A stretch of 64,000 nt of DNA, taken from assembly GCF_009846525.1 (NCBI RefSeq), contig NZ_CP024621.1, positions 620,001-684,000 of the forward strand. The letters run 5' to 3'. Position 1 is the first letter of the stretch; each line of letters starts with the position of its first letter. Positions 5,546 to 19,501 of this stretch are shown piece after piece. The translations under genes were made by a program, and so were the position numbers. This stretch comes from Halomonas meridiana. GTDB lineage: Bacteria > Pseudomonadota > Gammaproteobacteria > Pseudomonadales > Halomonadaceae. The notes beneath the pieces are model-generated. The model saw only the letters and a program-made list of their open reading frames with translations. It searched no databases and had not been told where the DNA came from.

Positions 5546-5574
5546 GGTTATCCAAACCAAGAGGAGGTGTGGTC

Positions 5575-6003: not shown

Positions 6004-6072
6004 AAAGCGAAGACGCGTGAAACCCTAGTACGAAGGCCCCGTATCAGCAGATACCTATTATGAGACTGCATC

Positions 6073-7806
6073 ATGATCATTGAGCGATGGGTGCCGCTAA
6101 TCGGCTGGCTGCGAACGTATCATCGGGGCTTGCTCACGCGGGATGTGCTTGCCGCAGTCATCGTCACGCTGATGCTGGTGCCGCAAGCGCTGGCCTACGC
6201 CATGCTGGCAGGGTTGCCGCCGGAAATGGGGCTCTATGCCAGCATGCTGCCGCTGGTGCTGTACGCCATCTTTGGCACCAGCGCGAGTTTGGCCGTAGGG
6301 CCGGTGGCGGTGGCAGCACTGATGACGGCCTCGGCGCTGAGCAGTTTTGCCGCGCCGGGCAGCCCGGAATATATCGGTGCGGCGCTGGTGCTGGCCGCGC
6401 TCTCTGGACTGATCCTTATCGCCATGGGCGTGCTTCGGCTGGGCTTTTTAGTCAACTTTCTCAGCCATCCGGTGATCTCCGGGTTTGTGACTGCCTCGGG
6501 GATTTTGATCGCGATCAGCCAGTTGAAGCACCTTTTTGGGGTCGAAGCATCCGGCCATAACGTGGTGGAACTGCTGCAAGCGCTATTGGGCCAGTGGCAG
6601 CAGGTGAATGTCATAACGCTGCTCATTGGCCTTGGCGTTTGGGCGTATCTATGGGTGTGTCGCAAGCACCTGAATGGCTGGCTGACCAAGCTGGGAATAC
6701 CTGCCAGTTGGGCAGGGTTAATGGTGAAAGCCGCGCCTATTTCGGCCGTGGTAGTGACCACGCTGTTGGCATGGGGTTTCCAACTAGAGCAGCGCGGGGT
6801 CGATTTGGTGGGCTTTGTGCCTAGTGGCCTGCCTGCCATGACGCTGCCGAGTCTGGATCAATCGCTGTGGCTCGGTCTGCTCCCGGCGGCGCTGCTGATC
6901 AGTTTGGTAGGGTTTGTAGAGTCGGTGTCCGTGGCGCAGACCCTGGCCGCCAAGCGCCGTCAGCGTATTGACCCTAACCAAGAGCTGATTGCGCTCGGCA
7001 TGGCGAATCTTGGCGCTGGCGTTAGCGGCGGCTCGCCGGTGTCGGGCGGTTTTTCGCGCTCGGTGGTCAATTTTGAAGCCGGGGCAGCAACGCCGCTGGC
7101 GGGGGCGTTTACCGCGCTTGGGATTGTGTTGACCACGCTGCTACTCACTGACTTACTGGCCTTTTTACCCACCGTCACGCTGGCCGCCACGATTATCGTG
7201 GCAGTGGGGACATTGATTGATTTGCCTGCGGTAAAGCGGACCTGGCAATACTCCCGCAGCGACGGGGTGGCGATGGTCGCTACTTTGCTGCTGACCCTTC
7301 TGCACAGCGTGGAAGTGGGCATTATCAGCGGGGTGGTGCTCTCGCTGGGGCTACACCTTTACCGCACCAGCCAGCCCCATAGTGCGGTGGTAGGGCGGGT
7401 ACCGGGCACCGAGCATTTCCGTAACGTGAAGCGCCATCAGGTCGAAACCGACGATCATGTCGCCATGCTGCGCATCGATGAAAGCCTCTATTTTGCCAAC
7501 GCCCGCTATCTTGAAGATACCGTCATGGCGCTGGCCGCCCGCTCGCCGTCGATCAAGCACATTGTGCTCACCTGTCAGGCAGTGAATGTCATCGATGCTT
7601 CGGCCCTGGAGAGCCTGGAGGCGATCAACGGTCGGCTGAAAGACGCCGGTGCCATGCTCCACTTGGCCGAAGTGAAAGGCCCGGTGATGGATCGCCTAAC
7701 GCACACGGCGTTCTACCACGAGCTCACCGGCCAAGTGTTCTTTACCACCTATGACGCTTGGCAAGCGTTGGCGCATCCGAGGTTGGATAGTGCGGTATCG
7801 GTTTGA
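6073..7806 (+). CDS. SulP family inorganic anion transporter with STAS domain
   Basis: Membrane transporter of 577 residues. Residues about 1-430 are hydrophobic with the SulP start VTLMLVPQALAYAMLAGLPPE; residues about 455-560 form the cytoplasmic STAS domain (VNVIDASALESLEAIN). SulP proteins carry sulfate, bicarbonate or other anions. Position behind an MBL and a DUF442 gene on the same strand suggests import or export of a sulfur oxyanion, possibly sulfite, formed by the upstream enzymes, though bicarbonate cannot be excluded. It is the last gene of the module; a hairpin follows between it and the convergent FAD gene. Confidence 0.9.
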   Translation: MIIERWVPLIGWLRTYHRGLLTRDVLAAVIVTLMLVPQALAYAMLAGLPPEMGLYASMLPLVLYAIFGTSASLAVGPVAVAALMTASALSSFAAPGSPEYIGAALVLAALSGLILIAMGVLRLGFLVNFLSHPVISGFVTASGILIAISQLKHLFGVEASGHNVVELLQALLGQWQQVNVITLLIGLGVWAYLWVCRKHLNGWLTKLGIPASWAGLMVKAAPISAVVVTTLLAWGFQLEQRGVDLVGFVPSGLPAMTLPSLDQSLWLGLLPAALLISLVGFVESVSVAQTLAAKRRQRIDPNQELIALGMANLGAGVSGGSPVSGGFSRSVVNFEAGAATPLAGAFTALGIVLTTLLLTDLLAFLPTVTLAATIIVAVGTLIDLPAVKRTWQYSRSDGVAMVATLLLTLLHSVEVGIISGVVLSLGLHLYRTSQPHSAVVGRVPGTEHFRNVKRHQVETDDHVAMLRIDESLYFANARYLEDTVMALAARSPSIKHIVLTCQAVNVIDASALESLEAINGRLKDAGAMLHLAEVKGPVMDRLTHTAFYHELTGQVFFTTYDAWQALAHPRLDSAVSV

Positions 7807-7858: not shown

Positions 7859-9280
7859 TTAAGGCAGTGCGGCGGAACTGAGCTTTAAGTGCAGCAGCTC
7901 GGCGGCGCTTTTGCCGGCCACTGCGCCCAGCACCACCGCACTCAGCAGCCCGTTGCCGGAAAGATAGCCACTGTCGTTGGAGCCCGACACCCCACGCGCC
8001 GCGCCACCTGCGGCAAACAGGTTCGGCAGCGCCTGCCCCTGTGTATTGAGCACGCGGGCCTTGCGATTCACTTCTAAACCGCCCTGGGTATGGAATAGTG
8101 CCCCGGTGACGCGAATGGCGTAGTAGGGGGCTTTAAGCAGGTTGGCGGGATCAAAGCGGCGGCCAAACGCATCGGCCGTTTGCTGCTCAGCGTGCTGCTG
8201 CATTTGGGCAAAGGTGGCTTGCAGTGCGCCAAGGGGAAGTTTCAAGCCAGTGGCCATCTCTTCCAGGGTTGAGAAGCTGCGTACTGCGCCGCTCTCCTGG
8301 GCGTTGCGGTAATCTTCGAACGCCTGGGCAGACTCATGAATGCGGGCATCATAAAGATTCCAGGCCACTTGCTCTGGCTGCGCCAGCACCTTGGCGGCCT
8401 GTTCGGAGTAGCCGCCGTGCTCATTGGAGAAGCGCTCGCCCTTGATGTTGACCTGAATGCCCCCTTGCATCATCAGTGCCCAGCTAATCAGCGTTTGATG
8501 AGGGGTGGCGAGCGAGCCGTGGCCTTGGCAGGCACCTAAGTCTTTGGTGCTCGCGCCCATTTCCTGACCCCACAGTAAGGCGTCATCCTGGTTGCCCTCG
8601 TGGCCGTAATACAGCGCGTGTCTCAGCGTGGGCAGATAACGTGCCACCAGCTCTGGGTTACCGCCATAGCCGTTGCAGGCCAGAACCAGCGCATCGCAGC
8701 CAATGCTTTCGCGGCTGCCGTCTGGGCGCTCCAGGGTGACGCCGCGCACGCGTTGGGTGCTGTCCACGTGTAGATCCACTACCCGGGCCTGGGTCAGAAT
8801 GTCGATCCCTGCCGCTTCGGCGGCGTTAAGTAGCGCGCCCATCAACTCTTCCCCGGTGCGCCGGGGCGTGGCGTGCATGCGCAGGTGGCGGTGGCCGGGG
8901 TAGAGAAAGCCTTCCACCAGCTCAAAGGGCACGCCATGCTGATCCGCTAGCCATTCGATGGTTGGGCCGGATTGGCTGGCCAGCAGTTCGACGATGCTCG
9001 GGTCGGCCTCAAAGCCATTCTTCTTTTGAATATCCTCTGCCATGGCCTCGGCAGAGTCCGTGACGCCCAACTCATGCTGAAAGCGCGTATTGGCGGCAGG
9101 AATAAACCCCGACGACATCGCCGTGCTGCCACGGGGCAGGGCGTCGCGCTCTAAAACAGCCAGCTCAACGCCCGCTTCCTGGGCGGCCAGGGCCGCTACC
9201 AGGCCGCAGGCCCCCGCGCCGATAATCAGCAGCGGAAGGTGGGCATCAAAGCCTTCCTGTGTGTAGGGAATGATCGCCAT
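7859..9280 (-). CDS. FAD-dependent oxidoreductase, fumarate reductase/KstD-like flavoprotein
   Basis: 473-residue soluble flavoprotein of the FAD_binding_2 family (fumarate reductase, 3-ketosteroid dehydrogenase, urocanate reductase). The FAD Rossmann motif is IIGAGACGLVAALAAQEAG near residue 19. The C-terminal signature GALFHTQGGLEVNRKARVL, then LPNLFAAGGAARG and SGYLSGNGLLSAVVLG, is characteristic. No heme motif or signal peptide is seen, so it is cytoplasmic. It is the last gene of a six-gene leftward operon; its ATG overlaps the upstream stop (TAATG). It may saturate or desaturate a C-C bond of the pathway's substrate; the substrate is unknown. Confidence 0.82.
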   Translation of the reverse strand: MAIIPYTQEGFDAHLPLLIIGAGACGLVAALAAQEAGVELAVLERDALPRGSTAMSSGFIPAANTRFQHELGVTDSAEAMAEDIQKKNGFEADPSIVELLASQSGPTIEWLADQHGVPFELVEGFLYPGHRHLRMHATPRRTGEELMGALLNAAEAAGIDILTQARVVDLHVDSTQRVRGVTLERPDGSRESIGCDALVLACNGYGGNPELVARYLPTLRHALYYGHEGNQDDALLWGQEMGASTKDLGACQGHGSLATPHQTLISWALMMQGGIQVNIKGERFSNEHGGYSEQAAKVLAQPEQVAWNLYDARIHESAQAFEDYRNAQESGAVRSFSTLEEMATGLKLPLGALQATFAQMQQHAEQQTADAFGRRFDPANLLKAPYYAIRVTGALFHTQGGLEVNRKARVLNTQGQALPNLFAAGGAARGVSGSNDSGYLSGNGLLSAVVLGAVAGKSAAELLHLKLSSAALP

Positions 9281-10227
9281 TACGCCTGCTCCGCAGCTGG
9301 GTGGAAGGCATCTAGAATTTCACCCGCCGGGGCCTGCCAGATGTCCGGGTGCCCGCTGATATGCGCCAGCACGTCTTCCAGGCAAGCAATCCGGTGAGGC
9401 TGGCCGACCAACCAGGGGTGCAGGTTCAAGGCAAACAGTCGCCCGCCCTGCTCGCGGGACTCTTCCAGCAGAAAATCAAACGCGTCTTTTACCTGAGTTA
9501 CCCAGGAATCTTCCGAGTGCAGGTTCTGGCTCATTACGAACTGATCTTCAATCTCGGTGGCCAACGGCATCATGGTCAATCTGCCGGTGTTGGTGTCACA
9601 AGCATACGGCATGTCGTCGTTCACCCAGTCGGCGCAGTACGCAATGCCGTTGTCTGCCAGCAGGTCCAGTGTGTTGAAACTCTGGTGCTTGGCGGGGCTT
9701 AGCCAGCCGCGAATAGGTTGGCCGGTCACTCGACGCAGGGTGTCCACGGAGCGTTTGACCAGCTCGGCTTCCTCTTCAATCGGTTGGCCGCCGTAGTGCA
9801 GGTGATCCATGTTCCAGCCGTGGGCGATAAATTCACCGCCGTGCTCTTTCAAGCGCTGCACCAAATAGGGCGTCTGCTCAGCTAGTTGCGCGTTAATCGC
9901 AAAGGTAGGCGTGATGTTGTGCGCGGCCAGCGCTTTCAGCACGCGATAGATACCCACCCGGTTGCCGTAATCCCGCAGCGAAAAGTGGCGCAGGTCCGGA
10001 TAGGGCATGGTCATGCCGTTGGGTACTTTGAACGGCTCGCCGCGCTGGTTGAGCGGATAGAACTGCAGCGAAATATTGATCCACACCGCCAGGGTTTTAC
10101 CCTCGGGCCAGGTGACCGGTGTACGTTCACTTAGCATCGACCATGCATAGCAGTCGTGGTCGTAGCCGTGGCGGCGCAAGGGGTAATCGAGGTAGTCGTC
10201 GTTGAGCGCCATGTCTTTGGATGCCAT
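9280..10227 (-). CDS. Polysaccharide deacetylase-fold protein, PuuE-like (first of two)
   Basis: 315-residue NodB-fold protein closest in style to allantoinase PuuE and cyclic-amide hydrolases rather than sugar deacetylases. It has RDYGNRVGIYRVL near residue 85 and EFIAHGWNMDHL near 130. The first CE4 motif (T-[FY]-D-D), which binds metal in deacetylases, is replaced by VWINISLQFYPL, as in PuuE. The start is ATG 10227 four nt after the upstream stop; an open extension upstream overlaps the previous gene and is not family-like. A ring-opening role on a cyclic amide or imide is inferred from family and from the amidohydrolase nearby. Confidence 0.8.
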   Translation of the reverse strand: MASKDMALNDDYLDYPLRRHGYDHDCYAWSMLSERTPVTWPEGKTLAVWINISLQFYPLNQRGEPFKVPNGMTMPYPDLRHFSLRDYGNRVGIYRVLKALAAHNITPTFAINAQLAEQTPYLVQRLKEHGGEFIAHGWNMDHLHYGGQPIEEEAELVKRSVDTLRRVTGQPIRGWLSPAKHQSFNTLDLLADNGIAYCADWVNDDMPYACDTNTGRLTMMPLATEIEDQFVMSQNLHSEDSWVTQVKDAFDFLLEESREQGGRLFALNLHPWLVGQPHRIACLEDVLAHISGHPDIWQAPAGEILDAFHPAAEQA

Positions 10228-10231
10228 AGGA

Positions 10232-11185
10232 TTAGCCCTCCCTGCGTGCGGTGGCGGCCTGGGCCTGGATGCTGTCGAGGGCGGCATCGTAATGGTGTTC
10301 GAGATAGTAATCGGCGATTTCTCTGCGCGTGGCGACCCATACATCCGGGTGCCCGGTGATGTACTCCAGTGCCTCTTCAAACGCCTTGATGCGATGGGGG
10401 CAGCTCACCTGATAGTTGTGAGTGGGAATGCACATCACCGTGCCGGACTCCGCGCCCTCTAAATACAGGCGATCAAAGTGGCGCTTGAGCATGGTGGCGT
10501 ACTGACGCGGCTCCACTTTGTTCACCGCGTAGACGATGGTGTCGTTCATCTCCAGCGAGTAGGGCATGGAGATAAAGCGCTTGCCGGAGCGAACGCTCAC
10601 CGGCGTTGGCTGATCGTCATGGAACAGGTCACAGGTATAAATCCCGCCTTTATCGCCGAATAGCTCTTCGCCCACTTCGGCAAATAGATCCAGAGTGCGC
10701 TCAGAGTGAGAGAGCGCAGGGGCCAGATAGCCCGCGCAGGCCTGGCCGGTATGGCGGTGAATGGTTTCCATACTGTCGCGAATCATTGCCCGCTCTTGGG
10801 CTTCGCTGAGCCCATAGGTGTAGCGGGTGTTGTAGATGCCGTGGCTAAAGAACTCCCAGTCGCGCTCTTTGCACATCTGGATAATCTCGGGATGGTGCTC
10901 GCAGAGCGCTACGGAAAGCGATACAGAGCCACGAACCCCGTATTTATCCAACAGGGCCATTTGGCGCTGGTGGCCCACCCGGTTGCCGTAATCGCGAATG
11001 CTGTAGCCGGGTACCGATGGGTGAGGGTGCGGCCACGGCTTTCGGCTCGGGTTCTGCGGCGGATCGAGTTCGTAATACTCGATATTAGGGGCGACCCAGA
11101 AGGCTACCTTTGCTCCGCCGGGCCAAGTAATTTTAGGGCGCTGGTCGTAGGCCCAGTAATCGTAAACGCCAAGTGACTCTTTCAT
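10232..11185 (-). CDS. Polysaccharide deacetylase-fold protein, PuuE-like (second of two)
   Basis: 317-residue NodB-fold protein, a distant paralogue of the neighbour at 9280-10227. Shared signs are SIRDYGNRVGHQRQM near residue 63, EFFSHGIYNTRYTYG near 112, and a metal-motif position occupied by FWVAPNIEYYEL without the Asp pair. GYLAPALSHSERTLDLFAE matches the substrate-side loop of the family. Two divergent copies in tandem suggest either two related substrates or a heteromeric enzyme. It starts 15 nt after the amidohydrolase stop, within the same operon. Sugar-deacetylase function is unlikely because there is no signal peptide. Confidence 0.8.
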   Translation of the reverse strand: MKESLGVYDYWAYDQRPKITWPGGAKVAFWVAPNIEYYELDPPQNPSRKPWPHPHPSVPGYSIRDYGNRVGHQRQMALLDKYGVRGSVSLSVALCEHHPEIIQMCKERDWEFFSHGIYNTRYTYGLSEAQERAMIRDSMETIHRHTGQACAGYLAPALSHSERTLDLFAEVGEELFGDKGGIYTCDLFHDDQPTPVSVRSGKRFISMPYSLEMNDTIVYAVNKVEPRQYATMLKRHFDRLYLEGAESGTVMCIPTHNYQVSCPHRIKAFEEALEYITGHPDVWVATRREIADYYLEHHYDAALDSIQAQAATARREG

Positions 11186-11200
11186 CGCTAGCTCCTCGCC

Positions 11201-11866
11201 TTATGCATCGCCCTCAAGCCACGCCAGCACGTCAGCAACGGGCATGACGTCGGCGTATTTGAGGTGCAGGTCGGTCAGGTTGGCGTAGTGGTAGCTTTCG
11301 TGCTTATCGGCGACGCACTCCATCGGCACGATGGTGCGGTAGCCACGGGACAGGCTCTCCACGGCAGTGGCGCGAATGCAGCCTGAGGTAGAGCCACCGG
11401 TGATGATTACTGTGTCGACCTGGTGCCATACCAGCAGGGACTGCAGCGGCGTTTCAAAAAAGGCCGAAGGCATGCGCTTGGTGTAGATCACGTCGCGGCT
11501 GCGGTCGATTTCGCAGCGCTCGTCGAATTCGGCGCGCTCGGAGCCGTACTTGATGTTTTGCAGTGAATCGGGAGTGTCGGTGCGGGTGCCCCACACGCCC
11601 GCATCTTCGGCGGAGTCCAGAAAGGCGACATGAGTCCAGACCACCGGCCAGCCCTTCTCCCGGAAGCCGCGCGCCAACTGGTTCGTATACTCCAGCTGTT
11701 TGGGGTCGGTTTCGTAGGCGGTCTTGAAGAGATCGGTACGGGTGTAGGCCTTCTGGGGGTCTACATTGACCAGCACAGCTTTTTTGCCAAAGCCAAAGGG
11801 CACCCGCTGAGGGTTGGCCATCACGTCGTGAAAGATCTCTTTTGCCGTTTTATCGGTGGTCTGCAT
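11201..11866 (-). CDS. Isochorismatase-family cysteine amidohydrolase
   Basis: 221-residue cysteine hydrolase of the isochorismatase superfamily, N-carbamoylsarcosine amidase-like. The catalytic triad is visible: Asp in VNVDPQKAYT, Lys in YTKRMPSAFF, Cys in GGSTSGCIRATAVES. The GCIRATAVES context is typical of members that hydrolyse amides or carbamoyl groups (N-carbamoylsarcosine, maleamate, ureidoacrylate). The start is ATG 11866 because AGGAG precedes it by 6 nt; an ATG at 11887 lacks such a site. In this operon it could hydrolyse the half-amide left after a PuuE-like protein opens a cyclic imide; that step is inferred. Confidence 0.85.
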   Translation of the reverse strand: MQTTDKTAKEIFHDVMANPQRVPFGFGKKAVLVNVDPQKAYTRTDLFKTAYETDPKQLEYTNQLARGFREKGWPVVWTHVAFLDSAEDAGVWGTRTDTPDSLQNIKYGSERAEFDERCEIDRSRDVIYTKRMPSAFFETPLQSLLVWHQVDTVIITGGSTSGCIRATAVESLSRGYRTIVPMECVADKHESYHYANLTDLHLKYADVMPVADVLAWLEGDA

Positions 11867-11937
11867 GGTTGTCTCCTGACTCATCATTGTTAGTGGCTAA
11901 GCGGTGAGCGCCTGGATGGTGCCTTGGTAGTGTTTGA

Positions 11938-12858
11938 TTAGCGATTGTCGTACTGCTCGCCAAGCTCCAGCATCGCTTGGGTGCCTAGGTAGTCGTTGAG
12001 CTGTTTAAAGTCGAGCATCTGGTCACGGAAGGCGTCGGTGGTGCCGTCCTGTTTCAGCGTGGCAAAGAAGCGACTGGCCATGTGGGTAATCGCTCGCACC
12101 AACGCGCCAGGGAAAATCACCAGCGAGAAACCCAGCGCTTCCAGCGCCTGGGCGTTCTGCAGCGGTGTGTCTCCACCCTCGACCATATTGGCCATGATCG
12201 GCACTTTGCCTTTGAACTGGGCCATGATCTTGCTGATATCGTCGTCGGTGCGGATACCTTCGATAAACAGCATGTCCACGCCCGCTTCATAGTAAGCCTG
12301 GGCGCGCTCGATGGCGCTGTCGGTGCCTTCCACGCCTAACGCATCGGTGCGGCCAATAATAAGCGTGCTATCATTTTCTCGCGCATCCAGTGCTGCATGC
12401 AATTTACCGACCATTTCGCTCTTGGAAACCAGCGTTTTGCCACGCAGATGGCCGCAGCGTTTAGGGTAAGTCTGGTCTTCCAACTGAATGGCGTTGGCGC
12501 CTGCGCGCTCTAGCAGACGCACGCTGCGCATCACGTTCATGGCGTTGCCAAAGCCGGTGTCGCAATCCACCACTACGGAAAGATTGGTGCGTTCGCGGAT
12601 ATGCGACATGGCGGTGCAAATTTCGGTAATGCTCAAAAGGCCAATATCGGGCCGCCCCAGTTGGGTGTACGCCAAGCTGGCACCCGAAAGGTAGACGGTA
12701 TCAAACCCAGCCTGTTCGGCCAGTGACGCGCCGAGTGCGTCAAACACGCCGGGAGCGACCACAATGGGGGGAGCCTGCAACAGCTGTTTAAGTTGAGCGG
12801 GCTGGTGTGAAGCCTGTGGAGAAGCAGCCTGTGGTGACGTAAGGTGTTGGCGTGTCAT
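11938..12858 (-). CDS. Isocitrate lyase/PEP mutase-family lyase
   Basis: 306-residue TIM-barrel enzyme of the ICL/PEP mutase superfamily (methylisocitrate lyase, 2,3-dimethylmalate lyase, oxaloacetate decarboxylase). Seen: VYLSGASLAYTQLGRPD, the metal-binding VVVDCDTGFGN near residue 110, QLEDQTYPKRCGH with the catalytic-loop Cys of C-C lyases near 146, then GRTDAL and FIEGI. KRCGH favours a lyase over a phosphonate mutase. The start is ATG 12858; an upstream in-frame extension overlaps the preceding gene's end region and looks random. With a LeuCD-type hydratase across the divide, a 2-alkylmalate or 2,3-dialkylmalate lyase giving pyruvate is the best guess. Confidence 0.85.
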   Translation of the reverse strand: MTRQHLTSPQAASPQASHQPAQLKQLLQAPPIVVAPGVFDALGASLAEQAGFDTVYLSGASLAYTQLGRPDIGLLSITEICTAMSHIRERTNLSVVVDCDTGFGNAMNVMRSVRLLERAGANAIQLEDQTYPKRCGHLRGKTLVSKSEMVGKLHAALDARENDSTLIIGRTDALGVEGTDSAIERAQAYYEAGVDMLFIEGIRTDDDISKIMAQFKGKVPIMANMVEGGDTPLQNAQALEALGFSLVIFPGALVRAITHMASRFFATLKQDGTTDAFRDQMLDFKQLNDYLGTQAMLELGEQYDNR

Positions 12859-12902
12859 AGCGGTCTCATCATTGTTGGGTAAGCGTTTGCATCTGATGGG
12901 TA

Positions 12903-13316
12903 TTAGCGGCGTACGAGCGCCAAGTCGTTCCACACTTCCTGGCGGGTAATCAGGCCATCGGTTAATTCAAAGCGGTCAATAAAGCGCACGCCGTTCGACG
13001 TGCTGCCATCCAGCCACTCCACTGATAATTCTCCGTGGCACACCACTACGCAGTGGTCTGCATTGGCACATCGTTGCTGGTCACTGCAAAGGTCTACTGC
13101 GTGAATTGTTTTGTGCACTTGGCGATAGCGTGCCTGTGCCCACTCCACAACTTCACTCAGTCGGCTCATGGTCGGCGAGCCGGGAAAACGGATGGTGACC
13201 GTTGCTGCCAGGTAGCGCTCGGCACGAGGCAAATCGCGGTCTTCCATGGCGCTTAAAAAAGCACGCACCTGTGCAATGCCATGGTGCTCTTTGGTTCCAC
13301 TGTGCAGGTTAAGCAT
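12903..13316 (-). CDS. SnoaL-like (NTF2 fold) protein
   Basis: 137-residue protein with the SnoaL/NTF2-like pattern: helical start (AQVRAFLSAMEDRDLPRAERYLA), then ATVTIRFPGSP, and a C-terminal strand pair ending VRFIDRFELTDGLITRQEVWNDLA. Such proteins are small cone-shaped binders, isomerases or hydrolases. It is the first gene of the leftward catabolic operon, about 80 bp from the GntR palindrome, and is followed 44 nt later by the lyase gene. The activity cannot be predicted. Confidence 0.72.
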   Translation of the reverse strand: MLNLHSGTKEHHGIAQVRAFLSAMEDRDLPRAERYLAATVTIRFPGSPTMSRLSEVVEWAQARYRQVHKTIHAVDLCSDQQRCANADHCVVVCHGELSVEWLDGSTSNGVRFIDRFELTDGLITRQEVWNDLALVRR

Positions 13317-13393
13317 CGTCGACTCTCATGCTGCCGATTTCTGTAATAATGGCTTTCAAGCGGCAGTAATTGTGTTATTTATTGGCTGTTGAT

Positions 13394-13413
13394 ATGTATT
13401 ATATGTAATACAT
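13394..13413. promoter_or_regulatory. Candidate GntR operator in the divergent promoter
   Basis: ATGTATTA and TAATACAT form a perfect 8-bp inverted repeat around TATG, between the SnoaL gene (-) and the GntR gene (+). Its core TGTATTA-N4-TAATACA recurs at 14316-14333. Confidence 0.75.
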
Positions 13414-13487
13414 TTTTATGTCTATTATTGTCCCTTCGTCAAGCCTGATACGAATTTTTTTGAACAACATCCTGAGGAGAGGCATGG

Positions 13488-14294
13488 ATGAGTGAGGCAC
13501 AACCCTCTGCGGTGGGCGGCACCAAATCACACCGGATTTATCTGCTGTTGAAAGATGCGATCTTGAGCGGACGGCTGCCTGCCGATAGCAAGCTGCCTGG
13601 GGAAAACAAATTGGCAGAACAGCACGGCGTTTCACGCGTGACTGTTCGAAGAGCGATGGAAGCGCTTCAAACCGCAGGTTTAGTGACCCGTAAGGCAGGG
13701 GTCGGCACGGTGGTGCTGGAGCAGCCGTTGGATGCCACGGTGATGACCGCCAGTGTGTCTAACCTGATGCCCAATATGGTCAAGATGAGTCAAGCCTCTC
13801 AGGTGCGGCTACTGGAGTTTGCTTATGTGCCGCCGCCGGAAATGATCCGTGAGCGGTTGGGCATGGCTCAGGGCGGAAAGGTGCAGCGTTCAGTGCGTGT
13901 GCGAATGGTCGACAATAAGCCGTTTTCTCATTTGGTAACCCACGTGCCGGAAACTATCGCCCTGCACTACAACGAGATGGATCTGGCGAATACACCACTG
14001 TTCGTGCTGTTGGAGCGCAGTGGCGTGAAGGTGGATCACGCTTCCCAATCCATTTCTGCGACGCTTGCGAGTCATGAGGTCGCTCAAGCGTTGGATGTGG
14101 CGGTTGGCTCGCCGCTGATCTCGCTCACTCGCGTGGTGTATGACGAGCAGGGGCGTGGGGTGGAGTATCTCGATGCGCTCTATCGCCCGGATCGTTACCG
14201 CTTCCAGATTGACCTTGAGCGAAACGGTGATGACAACTCTCGTTATTGGGAGCCGAAGGTTGGTGGAATGCCCACCGCTGGGAAAGACGAGTAG
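13488..14294 (+). CDS. GntR family regulator with UTRA domain (HutC type)
   Basis: 268-residue transcription factor. Residues about 10-75 are the winged helix (YLLLKDAILSGRLPADSKLP then LAEQHGVSRVTVRRAMEAL, GLVTRKAGVGTVV); residues about 95-245 are the ligand-binding UTRA domain (RVRMVDNKPFSHLVTHVPE, then PLISLTRVVYDEQGRGVEYLDALYRPDRYRF). It sits between two divergent catabolic operons and has the same palindrome on both sides, so it probably represses both and itself until an intermediate binds UTRA. ATG 13488 follows GAGGAGA by 7 nt; an ATG 4 nt earlier is out of frame. Confidence 0.92.
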   Translation: MSEAQPSAVGGTKSHRIYLLLKDAILSGRLPADSKLPGENKLAEQHGVSRVTVRRAMEALQTAGLVTRKAGVGTVVLEQPLDATVMTASVSNLMPNMVKMSQASQVRLLEFAYVPPPEMIRERLGMAQGGKVQRSVRVRMVDNKPFSHLVTHVPETIALHYNEMDLANTPLFVLLERSGVKVDHASQSISATLASHEVAQALDVAVGSPLISLTRVVYDEQGRGVEYLDALYRPDRYRFQIDLERNGDDNSRYWEPKVGGMPTAGKDE

Positions 14295-14315
14295 CGCAAT
14301 AGGCTATATTTTTAA

Positions 14316-14333
14316 TGTATTAAATTTAATACA
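14316..14333. promoter_or_regulatory. Second candidate GntR operator, before the LeuCD-type genes
   Basis: TGTATTAAATTTAATACA is a perfect 18-bp palindrome 22 nt after the GntR stop. Its 7-bp arms and 4-bp spacing match the site at 13394-13413. The gap also holds a weaker inverted repeat TTTGAC-N7-GTCAAA at 14357-14375. Confidence 0.78.
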
Positions 14334-14440
14334 GATTTAAAATTGTAAAAAATACATTTGACCTGTGTTGTCAAATTGCGCTAGTTGTATTGGGGTGGTG
14401 ATGACAAGTCTAACGAAGGCCGAGGCAACGAGCGAAAACC

Positions 14441-15874
14441 ATGAGTACCCCAACAACGCTGTTTGACAAAGTTTGGCGCGCCCACGAGGTCCACCGCAGT
14501 GAAAGCGGTCAAAGCCTGCTGTGGATTGACCGTCACTTTGTCCATGAAGGCTCCTTTCACGCCTTCAATAAACTCGCTGAGCGAGCCCTGCCCGTTGCCC
14601 GGCCCGATTTAACCTTTGGCATTGCTGACCATTATGTCCCGACGCTAGCCCGTGATTTGGCAGGCGTTGCTGATCCCAAAGTGCGCTCAATGATCGAGCA
14701 GCTCTCCCACAATACCCAGCAACATGGTGTGACGCTGTTTGGCCTGGATGACCCTCGCCAGGGCATCGTGCATGTGCTCGGGCCGGAGCAGGGGCTCACT
14801 CAGCCCGGGATGGTGATGGTGTGTGGCGATAGCCATACCGCTACCCACGGTGCCTTTGGCAGCATTGCCTTTGGCATTGGCGCATCAGAAGTCGCCCACG
14901 TGCTGGCTACTCAAACGTTGTGGCAAAGCAAGCCCAAGGTGATGCGCATCACGGTGGAAGGCCGTCTGGCCGAAGGCATTACCGCCAAGGATATCGCGCT
15001 CACCTGGATTGCTCGGTTGGGTGCCGATGGTGCACGGGGCTACGCCATCGAGTACGCCGGTGAAGCGATTCGCTCGCTCTCCATGGAAGCGCGCTTAACG
15101 CTGTGCAACCTCTCCATTGAGGGCGGTGGCCGTTGCGGCATGATCGCTCCCGATCAAACGACTTTCGACTATCTGCGCGAGCGCCCCTGGAGTCCGAAAG
15201 GCGATGCCTTCGAACAAGCCTGTGCGTACTGGTCCACGCTGCACAGCGACCCGGATGCTCCTTTTGACCTAGAGGTAACGCTGCATGCCGATGAGATTGC
15301 GCCGACAGTAACCTGGGGTGTTTCACCCGAAGAAGCGCTGCCGATCGACCGGGCGGTGCCTGATCCTGACCAGTTGAACGATCCGGCGAAAGCGCGCCAA
15401 GCCCGGGATAGCTTGTCCTATATGGGACTAACGGCGGGGCAAAAGCTCACTGATATCACCATTGATCGGGTATTTATTGGCTCCTGTACCAATGCACGTA
15501 TTGAAGACTTGCGTGCTGCGGCGGCGGTGCTGGCGGGCCACAAAAGCCGCGTGCCCGGTATGGTCTCGCCCGGCTCCACGCTGGTGAAGGCTCAGGCAGA
15601 AGCAGAAGGGCTGGACCGCATTTTTATCGATGCCGGGCTTGAGTGGCGCCACTCTGGCTGCTCTATGTGTGTCGGGATGAACGGTGATCTGGTGGCGAGC
15701 GGCGAGCGCTGTGCTTCCACCACCAACCGCAACTTCAAGGGTCGCCAGGGGCCAGGGGCGCGTACGCATTTGATGTCGCCAGCCATGGTGGCCGCTGCCG
15801 CCATACACGGCCACTTAGCGGATGTGCGCCAACTAACAGTGCCCAAGCGGATGCAAACAGGAGCGCACTCATGA
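14441..15874 (+). CDS. leuC: LeuC-type dehydratase large subunit (3-isopropylmalate dehydratase family)
   Basis: 477-residue aconitase-superfamily subunit. The three [4Fe-4S] ligands are C349 (GSCTNARIEDLRAA), C407 and C410 (GCSMC). CGDSHTATHGAFG and CASTTNRNFKGRQG are intact. It differs from housekeeping LeuC in spots normally conserved: RHFVHEGSFHAF for RHLVHEVTSPQAF, DHYVPT for DHNVST, and RHSGCSMC for RLPGCSMC. Together with its place in a GntR-controlled catabolic locus, this suggests a paralogue that hydrates a maleate-like diacid (citraconate, dimethylmaleate) rather than making leucine. The symbol is a family label. The small subunit follows with a 4-nt overlap. Confidence 0.82.
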   Translation: MSTPTTLFDKVWRAHEVHRSESGQSLLWIDRHFVHEGSFHAFNKLAERALPVARPDLTFGIADHYVPTLARDLAGVADPKVRSMIEQLSHNTQQHGVTLFGLDDPRQGIVHVLGPEQGLTQPGMVMVCGDSHTATHGAFGSIAFGIGASEVAHVLATQTLWQSKPKVMRITVEGRLAEGITAKDIALTWIARLGADGARGYAIEYAGEAIRSLSMEARLTLCNLSIEGGGRCGMIAPDQTTFDYLRERPWSPKGDAFEQACAYWSTLHSDPDAPFDLEVTLHADEIAPTVTWGVSPEEALPIDRAVPDPDQLNDPAKARQARDSLSYMGLTAGQKLTDITIDRVFIGSCTNARIEDLRAAAAVLAGHKSRVPGMVSPGSTLVKAQAEAEGLDRIFIDAGLEWRHSGCSMCVGMNGDLVASGERCASTTNRNFKGRQGPGARTHLMSPAMVAAAAIHGHLADVRQLTVPKRMQTGAHS

Positions 15875-16509
15875 AGCCGATCACTGTATTAGACACTCTG
15901 GGCGTAGCATTGCCCACTGCGAATATCGATACCGACCAGCTTATTCCCGCGCGCTTTATGAAAGAGCCGCGCAGCGTAGGTTACGGCCAGTTCCTGCTGT
16001 ACGACGTTCGCCATGATGAGCAGGGCACTGCCCATTCTGATTTTATTCTGCACCGCCCCGGTGGGGAGAGCGCAGAGGTGATGGTTAGCCGCCGTAATTT
16101 CGGTGCTGGCTCCTCCCGTGAAGCGGCGGTCTATGCGCTGGTGGACTACGGCTTTCGCTGCGTCGTGGCACCGAGTTTCGGCGATATCTTCGCCTCTAAC
16201 GCCGTCAATAATGGCCTGCTGCCAGCGGTCGTGGAGGAGGAGGACGCTGAGCGTTTGCTGGCAGCCCTTGGCAATTCTCCTGCCACTATCTACGTCAATT
16301 TGGAGCAACAGATTATTCGGGTTGCTGAGGTGGAAGTGGGCTTTACGATTAGCCCGGTGTGGCGAACCAAGCTGCTGAATGGCTGGGATGATATCGATAT
16401 GACTCGACAGCACGCTGACACGATCAGTCGGTTTGCAGCAGATTATGAGGAGCAGTTCTCCTGGGCAATTCCTAAGCCTCCAGAGAGTGACATCATCAGC
16501 AAGGGGTAA
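15871..16509 (+). CDS. leuD: LeuD-type dehydratase small subunit
   Basis: 212-residue swivel subunit that pairs with the preceding LeuC-type protein. NIDTDQLIPARFMK near residue 18 and RRNFGAGSSREAAVYALVDYGF near 75 are the substrate-contact and swivel motifs; LeuD proper usually reads ENFGCGSSREHAPWAL, so AGSSREAAVYAL is a variant consistent with another substrate. ATG 15871 overlaps the LeuC-type stop and follows AGGAG. TRAP transporter genes begin 113 nt downstream on the same strand. A role in leucine synthesis cannot be excluded without knowing whether another leuCD exists in the genome. Confidence 0.82.
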   Translation: MKPITVLDTLGVALPTANIDTDQLIPARFMKEPRSVGYGQFLLYDVRHDEQGTAHSDFILHRPGGESAEVMVSRRNFGAGSSREAAVYALVDYGFRCVVAPSFGDIFASNAVNNGLLPAVVEEEDAERLLAALGNSPATIYVNLEQQIIRVAEVEVGFTISPVWRTKLLNGWDDIDMTRQHADTISRFAADYEEQFSWAIPKPPESDIISKG

Positions 16510-16622
16510 GCTCAGCACTCTAGGTATTTAAAAAAATAACAGCACGCTTGCATCAACAGGTTTCAAAAATAGATCAACACAACAACCGCTATAAAAGATC
16601 ACCTTGTGCAGGAGACAAACGA

Positions 16623-17620
16623 ATGAAAAAAGTAACACTCACCCTGGGCATGCTTACCGCCTTGGCTTCGACTCACGTATTGGCGGTTGATCAAATCAAT
16701 GCCGTTCATGCTTTTCCGCCTTCCTTAATCTACACGCAAAGCTTTTTAGAGTTTGTTGATAAGGTAAACGAGCGCGGTGAAGGGGTGGTACAGATCAACG
16801 TGCGTGGCGGTCCTGAAGTGATTGGCCTTTCCGAGCAACCTGATGCGGTGCGTAATGGCGTGGTGGATATGGCGTATACCGCTGCCAGCTTTTACGCCGG
16901 TACCGTGCCGGAACGCGATGCCATGGTGGCGTCTAATACCAATGCCATCTATGCCCGTGAAAATGGTGGTATCGACCTGCTCAACCAGATCCACCAGGAA
17001 AAATGGGCACCTATTATCTGGGTTGGTTCGATAGCGGGGTCAGCTACAACCTCTACACCATTGACGAGCCTAGTATGGACGAAGAAGGCAATCTGAGTAT
17101 TTCAGGCCTGCGCCTGCGCAGTAACCCTGTTTATGATGCCTTCTTCCAGGACTATCTGGGAGCGCAGCCGATTAGCTTGCCGACCACTGATGTGTATGCC
17201 GCCTTGGAGCGTAGCGTGGTTAATGCCACCGGTTGGACTCAGATTGGCCTGAAAGACCTCAACTGGGACCGTTTCCTGAACTACCGGGTGGACCCTGCCT
17301 TCTTCTCCACGGACATGGGCGTTATCGTCAACCTGGATAAGTGGAACCAGCTGAGCGAAGAGTCCCAGCAGATCCTTCAGGAAGTGGCAATTGAGCATGA
17401 GCGTGAAAGCGCTGAAAAACTGGCTGAGCTAGCCGAGGAACAGCAGGCGCAACTTGAAGCCGATGGTATGCAAGTGGTGACACTGGAAGGCGAAGCGGCA
17501 CAGCGTTTCTCCGATGCGGCCCGTGATGCCACCTGGGAACGCATGCGTCGCCAGATGGAGCGTCATCCCATGGGGCTTGAGCACTACGATACGCTGATCG
17601 AAAAATTCAACGATCTATAA
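16623..17620 (+). pseudogene. TRAP transporter substrate-binding protein DctP, frameshifted
   Basis: Periplasmic solute receptor of a TRAP transporter, broken into two frames. Frame one begins at ATG 16623 after AGGAGA with signal peptide MKKVTLTLGMLTALASTHVLA and runs to NQIHQEK near 17003. The rest, MGTYYLGWFDSG to the stop at 17620, is one frame off. Adding one A to the A5 run at 16999-17003 would join them into a normal 332-residue protein (EKMGTYYLGWF). No other damage is visible. It is either a recent inactivating mutation, a phase-variable site or a homopolymer sequencing error. The substrate is probably the pathway's organic acid or imide. Confidence 0.88.
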
Positions 17621-17627
17621 AACGTAG

Positions 17628-17652
17628 GGGGCGCCGAGTAATCGAGCGCCCC
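17628..17652 (+). promoter_or_regulatory. Intercistronic hairpin between dctP and dctQ
   Basis: GGGGCGC pairs with GCGCCCC across an 11-nt loop, directly after the binding-protein stop and without a T-tract. Such hairpins commonly stabilise the upstream message so that binding protein exceeds membrane subunits. Confidence 0.5.
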
Positions 17653-17681
17653 GTTTGTGTGGCTATTTTCCAGGGTTTCTT

Positions 17682-18188
17682 ATGCGCTACGCACAACGCG
17701 GCTACCTGCTGCTGCTAAACGGCATGGCCCTACTGGCCGCCATCATGCTGGTCTGGCTGATGGTGGCAGTGGTGCTCTCGGTGATTATTCGCAACTTAGG
17801 GCTTCAGCCATCGGCTTGGTTCTTTCTTTCCACCGAGTACGCCATGTTCTACCTCACGCTATTAGGAGCACCGTGGTTGGTGCGCCAAAAAGGCCACGTA
17901 CATATTGAATTGCTAACATCGGTGCTGCCGCCGCCCGTACTGAATGTGCTCAGCCGAGGCGTGTCGCTACTGTGCGTAGTGGTCTGCGGCGTTCTGGCGT
18001 GGAAGGGGTTGGACTTAGTGTTCATGAATATAGAGCGTACCGATTATGACGTGCGTGCTTACTTTGTGCCTAAGTGGATCTTGACCATTGTATTTCCCAT
18101 CAGTTTTACACTGATGGCGATTGAGTTTGGCCGCTTTGTGGTCGGTCATGACATTCTTCACAGCGGCGAAGCGGGGATTAAAGAATAA
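17682..18188 (+). CDS. TRAP transporter small membrane subunit, DctQ type
   Basis: 168-residue protein with four hydrophobic segments (about residues 7-34, 44-62, 85-106 and 128-150), the usual DctQ layout. WFFLSTEYAMFYLTLLGAPWLVRQKGHVHIELL contains the conserved E-Y-x-M and RxxGHVxIELL signature. It bridges receptor and large subunit in import driven by an ion gradient, fitting a halophile using sodium. I start at ATG 17682 rather than an upstream in-frame codon at 17655, which lies in the hairpin tail. Its TAA overlaps the dctM ATG (TAATG). Confidence 0.88.
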   Translation: MRYAQRGYLLLLNGMALLAAIMLVWLMVAVVLSVIIRNLGLQPSAWFFLSTEYAMFYLTLLGAPWLVRQKGHVHIELLTSVLPPPVLNVLSRGVSLLCVVVCGVLAWKGLDLVFMNIERTDYDVRAYFVPKWILTIVFPISFTLMAIEFGRFVVGHDILHSGEAGIKE

Positions 18189-19501
18189 TGGAATGGTACT
18201 TTGCGCTCGCCTTTTTACTCTCGCTCATCCTGATCTTTATGGCGATTGGTACGCCCATCGCCCTGGCATTTTTAGCCGCCAATGTGATTGGCGCGTGGCA
18301 CTTTATGGGCGGACAAACGGGCATTCTACAGATGCTCAACAACGGTTTTGGCGCGCTCTCTAGCTTCAACTTAGTGCCGATCCCGCTTTTCTTGTTGATG
18401 GGTGAACTGTTCTTCCGCACCGGTTTGGGCATGAAAATGTTCAATGCCGTCGACCAATTGATGGGCAAAGTGCCGGGGCGTTTATCTTACGTAACGGTCG
18501 TGGGCGGCACGGCATTTTCCACTTTAAGTGGTTCTTCGATGGGGTCCACCGCCTTGATGGGGTCGCTACTGGTGCCTGAAATGGAGCGCCGAGGGTATAA
18601 AAAGAAAATGGCCATTGGGCCGATCCTGGGCACTGGCGGTCTTGCGATTATTATTCCGCCTTCTGCACTAGCGGTACTATTAGCAACGTTGGCAAAAGTA
18701 GATATCGGTGCGCTACTGATTGCGGGTATCTTACCGGGGCTGACGCTGGCAGGTTTCTATATCGCCACTATCTTTATTCAAACGAAGCTGGACCCCTTGG
18801 CGGCGCCAAACTATGAGCTTGAACCGGTACCACTGAAGGCTAAGTTAAAACTGATAGTGACCGATATTCTGCCGATGCTGAGTGTGATGGTCGTTATTGT
18901 GGCGTTGATGCTGATTGGTTTTGCCACGCCTTCTGAGGCAGCCGCGTTTGGAGCGTTGGGCGTCATTATTTTGGCGTTTATCTTCCGTTGCATGACATGG
19001 GAAGCGTTCAAACTATCGGTCACCGGGGCATTAAAAGTCACCTTGATGGCCTACTTGATTGTGTTCGGCTCGGCCACGTTCAGCCAGTTGCTCGGTTTCT
19101 CAGGAGCTTCGGGTGGGCTGATTAGCTGGGCTACCAGCTTCGACCTATCGCCTATCCTAATGCTGCTGGCGATGTTTGCGGTGCTGCTGGTGCTAGGCAC
19201 TTTCATGGAGCAGATCTCTATTATGATGCTGACCGTACCGATCTTCTTCCCGCTGGCTCAAGCGTTAGGGTTCGATCTAGTGTGGTTTGGGGTAGTGGTC
19301 TTGCTAGCGTTAGAGATCAGCTTCTCGACGCCTCCCTTGGGGCTATTGCTCTTCGTTATGAAAGGCGTTGCGCCCGCTGGGACCACCATGCGTGAAATAT
19401 ACTCAGCAGCGATACCTTATATTCTCTGCTCGATGTTGCTGGTGGCGGTGCTGATCGTCTTTCCCGGCTTGGCCACCTGGCTGCCCAGTATGTTGCAGTA
19501 A
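18188..19501 (+). CDS. TRAP transporter large permease, DctM type
   Basis: 437-residue, strongly hydrophobic DctM/SiaM-type channel subunit with about 12 membrane segments. GGTAFSTLSGSSMGSTALMGSLLVPEM is the first family signature, and FSTPPLGLLLFVMKGVAP the second near residue 380. MGTxx-type region PPSALAVLLATLAKVDIGALLIAGILPG is also present. It completes the TRAP operon behind dctP and dctQ, and a strong terminator follows. Despite the broken dctP, both membrane subunits look intact, which argues for a very recent or artefactual dctP frameshift. Confidence 0.92.
   Translation: MEWYFALAFLLSLILIFMAIGTPIALAFLAANVIGAWHFMGGQTGILQMLNNGFGALSSFNLVPIPLFLLMGELFFRTGLGMKMFNAVDQLMGKVPGRLSYVTVVGGTAFSTLSGSSMGSTALMGSLLVPEMERRGYKKKMAIGPILGTGGLAIIIPPSALAVLLATLAKVDIGALLIAGILPGLTLAGFYIATIFIQTKLDPLAAPNYELEPVPLKAKLKLIVTDILPMLSVMVVIVALMLIGFATPSEAAAFGALGVIILAFIFRCMTWEAFKLSVTGALKVTLMAYLIVFGSATFSQLLGFSGASGGLISWATSFDLSPILMLLAMFAVLLVLGTFMEQISIMMLTVPIFFPLAQALGFDLVWFGVVVLLALEISFSTPPLGLLLFVMKGVAPAGTTMREIYSAAIPYILCSMLLVAVLIVFPGLATWLPSMLQ

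What the first reader, a model, noticed from the sequence alone, without database searches (positions are those of the whole stretch)
7859..19501. Undescribed-looking GntR-controlled catabolic locus: PuuE-like pair, amidohydrolase, LeuCD-type hydratase, ICL/PEPM-type lyase, FAD reductase and TRAP transporter
Seen: two divergent operons around one GntR/UTRA regulator, with the same palindrome in both promoter regions. Established: PuuE-like NodB-fold proteins open cyclic amides or imides; isochorismatase-like amidases hydrolyse half-amides; LeuCD-type enzymes hydrate maleate-like diacids; ICL/PEPM lyases cleave alkylmalates; dimethylmaleate hydratase plus 2,3-dimethylmalate lyase end anaerobic nicotinate breakdown. 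Inference: the locus imports and degrades a cyclic imide or similar compound, for example an alkyl-substituted maleimide of the kind released by oxidation of tetrapyrroles, to pyruvate and a short acid. I know of no described pathway with this gene set.
Basis: partly seen in the sequence, partly recalled or inferred. Interest (0 to 1): 0.78.

Follow-up and report, generated by a model that had tools for sequence, protein, structure and literature searches.

The report
Tetrapyrrole-maleimide catabolic gene locus
A conserved gene locus of salt-loving and marine bacteria is predicted to take up and break down maleimides, the small rings likely left when chlorophyll and heme are oxidised; relatives of its ring-opening genes in several other marine bacteria sit beside genes of the red-chlorophyll-catabolite-reductase family.

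Summary
In detail: 12 genes in two divergent units around a GntR/UTRA regulator, with one palindrome at exactly two places. Corrections: dctP is split by a frame break here but whole in the 39 relatives checked; the 'FAD reductase' lacks the fumarate-reductase arginine and looks more like a ring-carbonyl dehydrogenase. The leuCD pair is a second copy. Among 80 related loci the amidase and both PuuE-like genes are adjacent in 79, and 43 carry the full set, across three proteobacterial classes. The new evidence lies outside the window: 32 loci have the triplet without the TRAP/FAD part, and several of these lie beside red-chlorophyll-catabolite-reductase (RCCR) and Rieske oxygenase genes. RCCR is rare (1 of 370 genomes of the class), yet 9 of 10 and 14 of 14 RCCR-bearing genomes in two families carry the triplet's NodB2 gene, within 15 kb in 15 of 24. 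Neighbours repeat one likely chemistry with unrelated enzymes: hydrate a methyl-substituted diacid, split off pyruvate. Best reading: a stand-alone module scavenging alkyl-methylmaleimides (such as hematinic acid) from tetrapyrrole breakdown.

The parts
7859..9280 (-). FAD-binding C=C oxidoreductase (473 aa), predicted ring-carbonyl dehydrogenase
   Evidence: PF00890 3.9e-55; TIGR01813 263 bits, below cut-off 285; fold nearest urocanate/fumarate reductases, then ketosteroid dehydrogenases; Arg402 position is Tyr291, Tyr in all 40 rows with a letter there
9280..10212 (-). NodB1: PuuE-like NodB-fold hydrolase (start ATG taken by comparison with relatives)
   Evidence: PF01522 2.2e-11; TIGR03212 117 bits, cut-off 424.6; PDB 3s6o, 1z7a, 3cl6 PuuE
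10232..11185 (-). NodB2: PuuE-like NodB-fold hydrolase (317 aa)
   Evidence: TIGR03212 113.8 bits; 3cl6 PuuE 6.5e-22; model pLDDT 79.6, best fold match PuuE
11201..11887 (-). AMI: isochorismatase-type half-amidase
   Evidence: PF00857 5.9e-28; best PDB 4l07 4e-27, then N-carbamoylsarcosine amidohydrolase; D43/K137/C170 conserved
11938..12858 (-). ICL/PEPM-family lyase, predicted alkyl-methylmalate lyase
   Evidence: PF13714 6.1e-45; prpB 293.8 bits, cut-off 354.4; KRCGHLRGK motif
12903..13316 (-). SnoaL_2 protein; in Marinobacter, Saccharospirillum and others fused behind a tautomerase-like N-terminal stretch
   Evidence: PF12680 1e-7; fusion seen (tautomerase label is by eye)
13394..13413 (.). 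operator-like palindrome 1
   Evidence: conserved
13488..14294 (+). GntR/UTRA (HutC-type) regulator
   Evidence: PF07702 1.3e-34, PF00392 6.6e-20
14315..14334 (.). operator-like palindrome 2
   Evidence: conserved
14441..15874 (+). LeuC-type hydratase large subunit (second copy in genome)
   Evidence: TIGR00170 668.5 bits, cut-off 560.25; leuB beside the other copy
15871..16509 (+). LeuD-type hydratase small subunit
   Evidence: TIGR00171 170.3 bits, cut-off 116.25
16623..17096 (+). dctP, 5' part (TRAP solute-binding protein, gene split by a frame break)
   Evidence: PF03480 1.6e-4, just under its cut-off; sequence; one open frame in 39 of 39 relatives checked
17003..17620 (+). dctP, 3' part, other frame
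   Evidence: TRAP_S1 71.9 bits, cut-off 50
17655..18188 (+). dctQ, small TRAP permease subunit
   Evidence: position, and a cluster of relatives in 40 loci; no NCBIfam hit
18188..19501 (+). dctM, large TRAP permease subunit
   Evidence: TIGR00786 276.3 bits, cut-off 268.45

Best explanation
This is a catabolic locus, predicted to be GntR-controlled, that likely imports alkyl-methylmaleimides left from tetrapyrrole breakdown, such as hematinic acid, and would turn them into ammonia, pyruvate and a short organic acid. Predicted steps: (1) the TRAP transporter takes up the carboxylated imide; (2) the FAD enzyme desaturates dihydro forms (the hydrogenated ring of chlorophyll) to the maleimide; (3) the NodB1/NodB2 pair opens the imide ring to a half-amide; (4) the isochorismatase-type amidase releases ammonia, giving a 2-methyl-3-alkylmaleate; (5) LeuCD hydrates it to a 2-methyl-3-alkylmalate, a homologue of 2-methylisocitrate or citramalate; (6) the ICL/PEPM lyase splits it into pyruvate and an acid (glutarate from hematinic acid, butyrate from methylethylmaleimide, propionate from dimethylmaleimide). 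The GntR/UTRA protein would bind two operators, one serving the leftward operon and gntR, one serving leuCD-dctPQM. Shown here: gene content, the palindrome pair, conservation, and genomic linkage of the triplet to RCCR genes in relatives. Inferred: every catalytic step, the substrate and the regulation.
For: Triplet AMI-NodB2-NodB1 adjacent in 79/80 loci; 11-gene set in 43/80. In loci without the TRAP/FAD part the triplet can neighbour RCCR/bilin-reductase genes (L069, L074, L077, L049: PF06405 1.4e-19 to 1e-12; L053, L070, L081: PF05996/PF06405 below their cut-offs, 2e-4 to 8e-6), Rieske oxygenases and, in L074, a chlorophyllase-family hydrolase. PF06405: 1/370 genomes of the class, 0/14 control genomes; but 9 of 10 RCCR+ genomes in the family of L074 carry NodB2 against 21 of 130 RCCR-, 14 of 14 against 2 of 130 in the family of L055, 1 of 1 against 4 of 369 in the class sample; linked within 15 kb in 15 of 24 double-positive genomes. 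Hydrate-and-split sets recur with unrelated enzymes: LEUD_arch/DmdB-type hydratase plus a 62%-identical lyase (L057), LeuCD plus CoA-transferase plus HMG-CoA-lyase type (L074), RipB/RipC itaconate-type (L055). NodB2 folds like PuuE, and a PuuE-related NodB protein is assigned as a cyclic imide hydrolase (PMC9304392, passages). Amidase triad and lyase cysteine conserved. Maleimides and hematinic acid are reported in senescent leaves and lake sediments (PMC7318184, passages).
Against: No activity data. The window genome, four full-locus genomes and a same-genus NodB2 genome (G315, full set not checked) have no RCCR match (0 of 6), and on the NodB2 tree one branch separates all full-locus rows from all RCCR rows (support 79). 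17 of 29 triplet genomes and 21 of 30 in the family of L074 lack RCCR. The Mg-dechelatase family Staygreen was not found in 59 genomes, though no control rang. The Rieske proteins tested match VanA_C, and no hit to the plant pheophorbide-oxygenase domain was listed. The window LeuC is nearer its own housekeeping LeuC (55%) than the LeuC of RCCR loci (46-51%). L050 and L060 have the locus without LeuCD. Halieaceae-type loci carry both an ICL/PEPM gene and the CoA route, so which is used is unclear. Co-occurrence counts are not corrected for common descent. dctP is broken here.
Confidence: 0.62

Rival explanations
1. The triplet acts on a pyrrolinone (lactam with an acetamide or acid side arm, like bilirubin oxidation end products) and not on the imide itself; the amidase works on the side-arm amide and the NodB pair on the ring lactam.
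For: Same RCCR linkage; single-ring products of this kind are reported in plants and herbivores (PMC7318184, passages); there are two ring-opening proteins and one amidase, which could mean two different bonds.
Against: Ring opening of a lactam would not directly give the diacid that LeuCD-type, DmdAB-type or RipB/RipC-type enzymes need (families; the argument is inference). The PuuE-branch enzymes named in PMC9304392 act on small cyclic imides.
Confidence: 0.15
2. The full locus of halomonads degrades an unrelated small cyclic imide or half-amide (succinimide, glutarimide, maleimide from pyridine or other N-heterocycle breakdown); the tetrapyrrole link applies only to the other loci.
For: Full-locus genomes tested have no RCCR match, and their NodB2 forms one clade (SH-aLRT 99). 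HxnM-type imidases act in nicotinate breakdown. The amidase resembles 4l07, which I recall as maleamate amidase of nicotine degradation.
Against: 74-79% identity of NodB2 and 70-80% of AMI between the window and the other loci (NodB1 is lower, 53-63%) argues for one substrate class; an unsubstituted imide would give maleate or succinate and need no lyase (inference).
Confidence: 0.17
3. The LeuCD/lyase half is a separate alkylmalate pathway joined by chance to an imide/ureide operon under one regulator.
For: Two loci keep the triplet, lyase and TRAP part without LeuCD; hydratases differ between clades.
Against: 43 of 80 loci keep all parts, and both operons share one palindrome pair in 35 of 43 loci.
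Confidence: 0.04

Closest known systems
Cyclic imide hydrolysis (imidase plus half-amidase; Pseudomonas putida YZ-26 imidase, fungal HxnM/HxnN)
   Same: PuuE-branch NodB-fold ring opener followed by an amidase that frees ammonia (HxnM/HxnN passages; the YZ-26 paper seen only as a reference in it).
   Different: Two NodB proteins instead of one, an isochorismatase-type amidase, and a hydratase plus lyase after it; context points to alkylated maleimides.
Dimethylmaleate hydratase / 2,3-dimethylmalate lyase end of anaerobic nicotinate fermentation (recalled)
   Same: Aconitase-family hydratase plus ICL/PEPM lyase giving pyruvate; L057 has a LeuD/DmdB-family hydratase near a lyase 62% identical to the window's.
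   Different: Here an imide opener and amidase precede the diacid; other genes of the nicotinate pathway were not searched for.
Itaconate degradation by RipABC
   Same: CoA-transferase, RipB-like hydratase and RipC-like lyase near the triplet in Microbulbifer; pyruvate-forming chemistry (recalled).
   Different: Below the RipB and RipC cut-offs (248.7/340 and 217.3/375 bits); no such genes in the window locus.
Plant chlorophyll breakdown (pheophorbide a oxygenase / RCC reductase / phyllobilins)
   Same: RCCR-family and Rieske oxygenase genes near the triplet in heterotrophic bacteria.
   Different: The plant route yields bilin-type phyllobilins (PMC4950323, abstract in listing); here it would continue to single rings and central metabolism. 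The window itself holds only the terminal part.
Flavocytochrome c fumarate reductase / urocanate reductase
   Same: Best sequence and fold matches of the FAD protein.
   Different: The 473-residue protein has only the flavin part; Arg402 position is Tyr; GY..GNG motif invariant.

Membership tests
PuuE allantoinase | NCBIfam TIGR03212 cut-off (424.6 bits) | tested here: not met
   117 and 113.8 bits
PuuE-branch cyclic imide hydrolases (NodB fold) | nearest solved relatives are PuuE/HpPgdA-type rather than sugar deacetylases | tested here: met
   sequence; fold of NodB2: PuuE and its kin rank 1-10; NodB1 was not modelled
PuuE-branch cyclic imide hydrolases (NodB fold) | imide hydrolase activity | not testable with these tools
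   needs purified protein
Isochorismatase-type (maleamate / N-carbamoyl) amidohydrolase | Asp-Lys-Cys catalytic residues | tested here: met
   D43 in 66 of 67, K137 and C170 in 67 of 67 aligned rows, window included (roles recalled)
2-Methylisocitrate lyase PrpB | NCBIfam TIGR02317 cut-off (354.4 bits) | tested here: not met
   293.8 bits
ICL/PEPM lyases that cleave alkylmalates | K-x-C-G-H lyase motif | tested here: met
   KRCGHLRGK in window; K[KR]CGH in 50 of 51 cluster members, the exception (L025) a short fragment
3-Isopropylmalate isomerase LeuCD | TIGR00170/TIGR00171 cut-offs | tested here: met
   668.5/560.25 and 170.3/116.25 bits
3-Isopropylmalate isomerase LeuCD | role in leucine synthesis (leuB alongside) | tested here: not met
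   the leuB over its cut-off lies beside the other copy at C1:1.646 Mb
Soluble fumarate reductase (flavocytochrome c) | active-site Arg402 | tested here: not met
   aligned residue is Tyr291 (counted on the 1d4c alignment), Tyr in all 40 rows with a letter; role of Arg402 recalled
Ketosteroid-dehydrogenase-like carbonyl-activated dehydrogenase | catalytic Tyr residues and a Tyr/Gly carbonyl pocket (recalled) | tested here: inconclusive
   Y291 and GY..GNG invariant; ketosteroid dehydrogenase structures rank below fumarate reductases
RCCR-dependent tetrapyrrole breakdown | RCC reductase family gene in the genome | tested here: not met
   window genome 0 matches (where no control rang; the same family rings in 10 of 140 genomes); met in 12 of 29 relatives' genomes
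Plant-type chlorophyll degradation | Staygreen Mg-dechelatase | tested here: inconclusive
   0 of 59 genomes, no control rang

The most novel reading that the evidence does not exclude
Marine heterotrophic bacteria mineralise chlorophyll or other linear tetrapyrroles completely: an island of Rieske oxygenase, several RCC-reductase-family enzymes and partners cuts the pigment to single rings, and this NodB-pair/amidase/hydratase/lyase module turns the resulting alkyl-methylmaleimides into pyruvate, acids and ammonia. The halomonad locus in the window is the free-standing scavenger version, with its own transporter and operator pair, that lives on maleimides released by light or oxidants and has spread across three classes of Proteobacteria.
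Probability: 0.45. Interest if true: 0.9.

Novelty: new variant of a known kind. Interest (0 to 1): 0.75.

Why it matters
Chlorophyll is made and degraded on a scale of about 10^12 kg a year (PMC7318184, passage), and maleimides and hematinic acid are reported in leaves and sediments (same passages). In the listings of the paper searches made here I saw no described bacterial route that consumes them (long lists were cut, and most subscription journals are not held). If right, this locus gives named genes, a regulator and testable substrates for the last step of pigment recycling, and the RCCR-linked islands give candidates for the earlier steps.

Tried and rejected
Sugar deacetylase role for the NodB pair: rejected for NodB2, because the ten best fold matches are PuuE/HpPgdA-type and carbohydrate esterases score far lower; NodB1 by sequence only. 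Allantoinase: below cut-off. leuCD as the leucine pair: rejected. Riboflavin catabolism as context: outline and abstract of PMC12746152 show different enzymes. Classical chlorophyll entry: no Staygreen found. A LeuC tree was made to see whether the window LeuC groups with that of RCCR loci; it separates them, but its 'own housekeeping' row was a wrong reading frame, so I use only the tblastn identities. In some searches my label 'FAD' on cluster 4 is wrong: cluster 4 is DctM and the FAD gene is cluster 7; counts are from tblastn and are not affected. My simple ORF caller hid some genes under longer overlapping frames (for example an RCCR gene in L055 and some DctP genes), so cluster counts are lower bounds. 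Tetrapyrrole genes near the full-locus clade were not sought beyond RCCR. The search for homologous proteins was not used. Literature: ten searches; in the rows listed (titles and starts of abstracts; some searches listed only part of what matched) I saw no description of this locus or of bacterial maleimide catabolism.


Full report
OBSERVATION. The window holds, leftward from 13316, SnoaL_2, ICL/PEPM lyase, isochorismatase-type amidase (AMI), two PuuE-like NodB-fold genes (NodB2, NodB1) and a FAD protein; rightward from 13488 it holds gntR, leuC, leuD, dctP, dctQ and dctM. One palindrome lies at 13394-13413 and 14315-14334 and nowhere else in the window; 0.01 matches are expected. In 43 related loci with GntR, LeuC and lyase, both sites are present with at most 2 mismatches in 35, and each locus holds 0-3 such sites in all. 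The genome has five Aconitase_C places; one at C1:1645242 adjoins leuB at C1:1645958, so the window pair is a second, non-leucine copy. dctP is broken into two overlapping frames here; in the 39 loci whose ORF set held a DctP match it is one open frame (tblastn finds DctP in more loci).

DISTRIBUTION. NodB2 searched in species-representative genomes gave 421 relatives, of which the best 80 were kept; the other 341 were not seen. The AMI-NodB2-NodB1 triplet is adjacent in 79 of 80 (L047, a short contig, lacks AMI). By tblastn at 50-60% identity or more, the full set with SnoaL left out is present in 43 of 80; five are partial (L025 and L047 short contigs, L046 without GntR, L050 and L060 without LeuCD and cut before the FAD gene); 32 have the triplet without FAD and TRAP genes. 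The full-set loci are in Halomonas/Vreelandella/Billgrantia, Marinobacter, Saccharospirillum, Alloalcanivorax, Terasakiella, a Paracoccus MAG and others. On the NodB2 tree the window and the 30 full-type loci that were entered form one clade with one unlabelled short Halomonas contig, L025 (SH-aLRT 99). In a sample of the window's own family 14 of 151 genomes have NodB2, in 2 of 24 genera, so the locus is patchy.

THE SECOND CONTEXT. The 32 other loci suggest what the triplet belongs to. In L069, L074, L077 (genomes of one family; L074 and L077 are Halieaceae in the labels) and L049 (Microbulbifer) a gene of the red-chlorophyll-catabolite-reductase family PF06405 lies about 6-7 kb from NodB2, with E-values of 1.4e-19, 1.5e-19, 1.8e-15 and 1e-12. 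L053, L070 and L081 have a weaker relative that matches both the bilin-reductase and RCCR families below their cut-offs; the genome of L053 also has two RCCR genes over the cut-off 25-35 kb from the triplet. A Rieske-protein cluster is present in 9 loci; the four members put to Pfam all match Rieske and VanA_C. L074 also has an alpha/beta hydrolase that matches the chlorophyllase family (PF07224, 3.7e-13) among others. In Microbulbifer sp. NKW57 about 60 kb around the triplet hold three RCCR-family genes over the cut-off and a fourth below it, and by similarity to the clusters LeuCD, MmgE/PrpD-like genes, CoA-transferases, HMG-CoA-lyase and CitE types, a third NodB and the Rieske gene.

CO-OCCURRENCE. 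PF06405 rings in 0 of 14 control genomes and in 1 of 370 sampled genomes of the window's class. Of 30 loci named, 29 genomes were searched and 12 match (10 over the cut-off); the four full-locus genomes among them have none. In the family of L074, 10 of 140 genomes have RCCR and 30 of 140 have NodB2 (E <= 1e-60); 9 of the 10 overlap, G068 being the exception (Fisher p 2.8e-6). In the family of L055, 14 of 144 have RCCR, 16 have NodB2, and all 14 overlap (p 1.2e-17); in one of these, G232, the NodB2 frame has two stops and lies far from RCCR. In the class sample the single RCCR genome, G773, is one of five with NodB2, on different contigs (p 0.0135). Same-contig distance is at most 15 kb in 15 of 24 and at most 60 kb in 19 of 24 double-positive genomes. 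The p-values ignore shared ancestry, and kinship inside the two families was not told. On the NodB2 tree, RCCR genomes stand on several branches of the non-TRAP part among rows without RCCR, but one branch (support 79) separates them from all full-locus rows. The reverse does not hold: many triplet genomes have no RCCR, as expected if the triplet can also live on imported fragments.

CHEMISTRY. RCC and bilin reductases act on linear tetrapyrroles (known families). The rings of chlorophyll and heme mostly carry a methyl beside ethyl, vinyl or propionate (general knowledge), so oxidation gives methyl-alkyl maleimides and hematinic acid; these are named as products and reported from senescent leaves and lake sediments in PMC7318184 (passages). 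Near the triplet I see three sets that fit such a diacid: LeuCD, or in L057 a LeuD/DmdB-family pair, with an ICL/PEPM lyase (62% identical in L057); LeuCD with CoA-transferase and HMG-CoA-lyase type (L074, L067, L077); and CoA-transferase with RipB-like hydratase and RipC-like lyase (L055). L074, L077 and L055 have an ICL/PEPM gene as well (46-48%), so which set is used there is open. RipABC degrade itaconate via citramalyl-CoA to pyruvate (recalled). All would hydrate a methyl-bearing unsaturated diacid to a 2-hydroxy-2-methyl acid and split off pyruvate. The window lyase reads KRCGHLRGK, closer here to the petal death protein (KKCGHMRGK) than to PrpB (KRCGHRPNK); that the petal death protein accepts alkylmalates is recalled.

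THE ENZYMES. Both NodB proteins match PuuE by sequence, and the NodB2 model (pLDDT 79.6) finds PuuE and its kin in ranks 1-10. HxnM of Aspergillus, assigned as a cyclic imide hydrolase, is related to the same group and 64% identical to a P. putida imide hydrolase homologue (PMC9304392, passages). AMI is nearest 4l07 and N-carbamoylsarcosine amidohydrolase; I recall 4l07 as maleamate amidase. The FAD protein (pLDDT 80.7) is nearest urocanate and fumarate reductases, but the residue aligned to Arg402 is Tyr291, and a GYLSGNG segment stands where those have NRLGGN; Tyr291, Gly438, Tyr439, Gly442, Asn443 and Gly444 are the same in all 40 rows with a letter there. I recall such tyrosines from ketosteroid dehydrogenases, so I read it as a dehydrogenase acting next to a ring carbonyl, fitting the hydrogenated ring of chlorophyll (ring hydrogenation). 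The SnoaL protein is, in Marinobacter, Saccharospirillum and some Billgrantia loci, fused to an N-terminal stretch that looks like a 4-oxalocrotonate tautomerase; the window keeps only the SnoaL part.

LIMITS. No activity, no expression and no substrate binding can be shown here. The host of the window has no RCCR match, so the substrate would come from outside, and its dctP is split. Staygreen was not found in 59 genomes. LeuC of the window and of RCCR loci are not close (46-51%, against 55% to the housekeeping copy), so the hydratase was probably recruited more than once. Two loci lack LeuCD.

NOVELTY. The enzyme families and the imidase/half-amidase scheme are known; the joined scheme, the two-NodB arrangement and the link to RCCR genes in heterotrophic bacteria were not seen in the rows listed by the searches made. 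PMC10151467 uses RCCR as an outgroup of bilin reductases and describes bacterial bilin-reductase clusters of other content (passages).

Noticed in passing
window 16623-17620: dctP of the TRAP transporter is split into two overlapping frames; intact copies exist in the 39 relatives examined. Either a sequencing error or a recent loss of uptake.
   Followed up: partly
L098-L101 (Microbulbifer sp. NKW57, G007:C1 about 693-752 kb): An island of about 60 kb with three RCC-reductase-family genes over the cut-off and one below, Rieske oxygenase, flavin reductase, CoA-transferases, MmgE/PrpD-like genes, LeuCD and the NodB triplet: a candidate bacterial tetrapyrrole-degradation island.
   Followed up: partly
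L074:6834-7805, L074:2847-3461, L063:8288-9025: Conserved proteins without a Pfam match (clusters c80, c120, c19) that recur in RCCR or triplet loci.
   Followed up: no
L102:5261-6019 and L103:3966-4742: Two arylmalonate-decarboxylase-family (Amdase) genes near RCCR genes in Litorivivens; I recall maleate isomerases as relatives of this family.
   Followed up: no
L037:7673-8233 against window 12903-13316: SnoaL protein fused behind a tautomerase-like stretch in several genera; the window keeps only the SnoaL part.
   Followed up: partly
window 4637-7806: Metallo-beta-lactamase-fold-like protein, a small downstream protein and a SulP-like transporter in one direction, resembling a persulfide dioxygenase operon (by eye, no search).
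   Followed up: no
window 19581-20813: Next to the locus: ZigA zinc metallochaperone GTPase (687.8 bits, cut-off 600).
   Followed up: no
L009 (Halomonas olivaria TYRC17): Lyase, amidase, NodB1 and FAD matches come in several pieces in this record, suggesting frame errors in the assembly.
   Followed up: no
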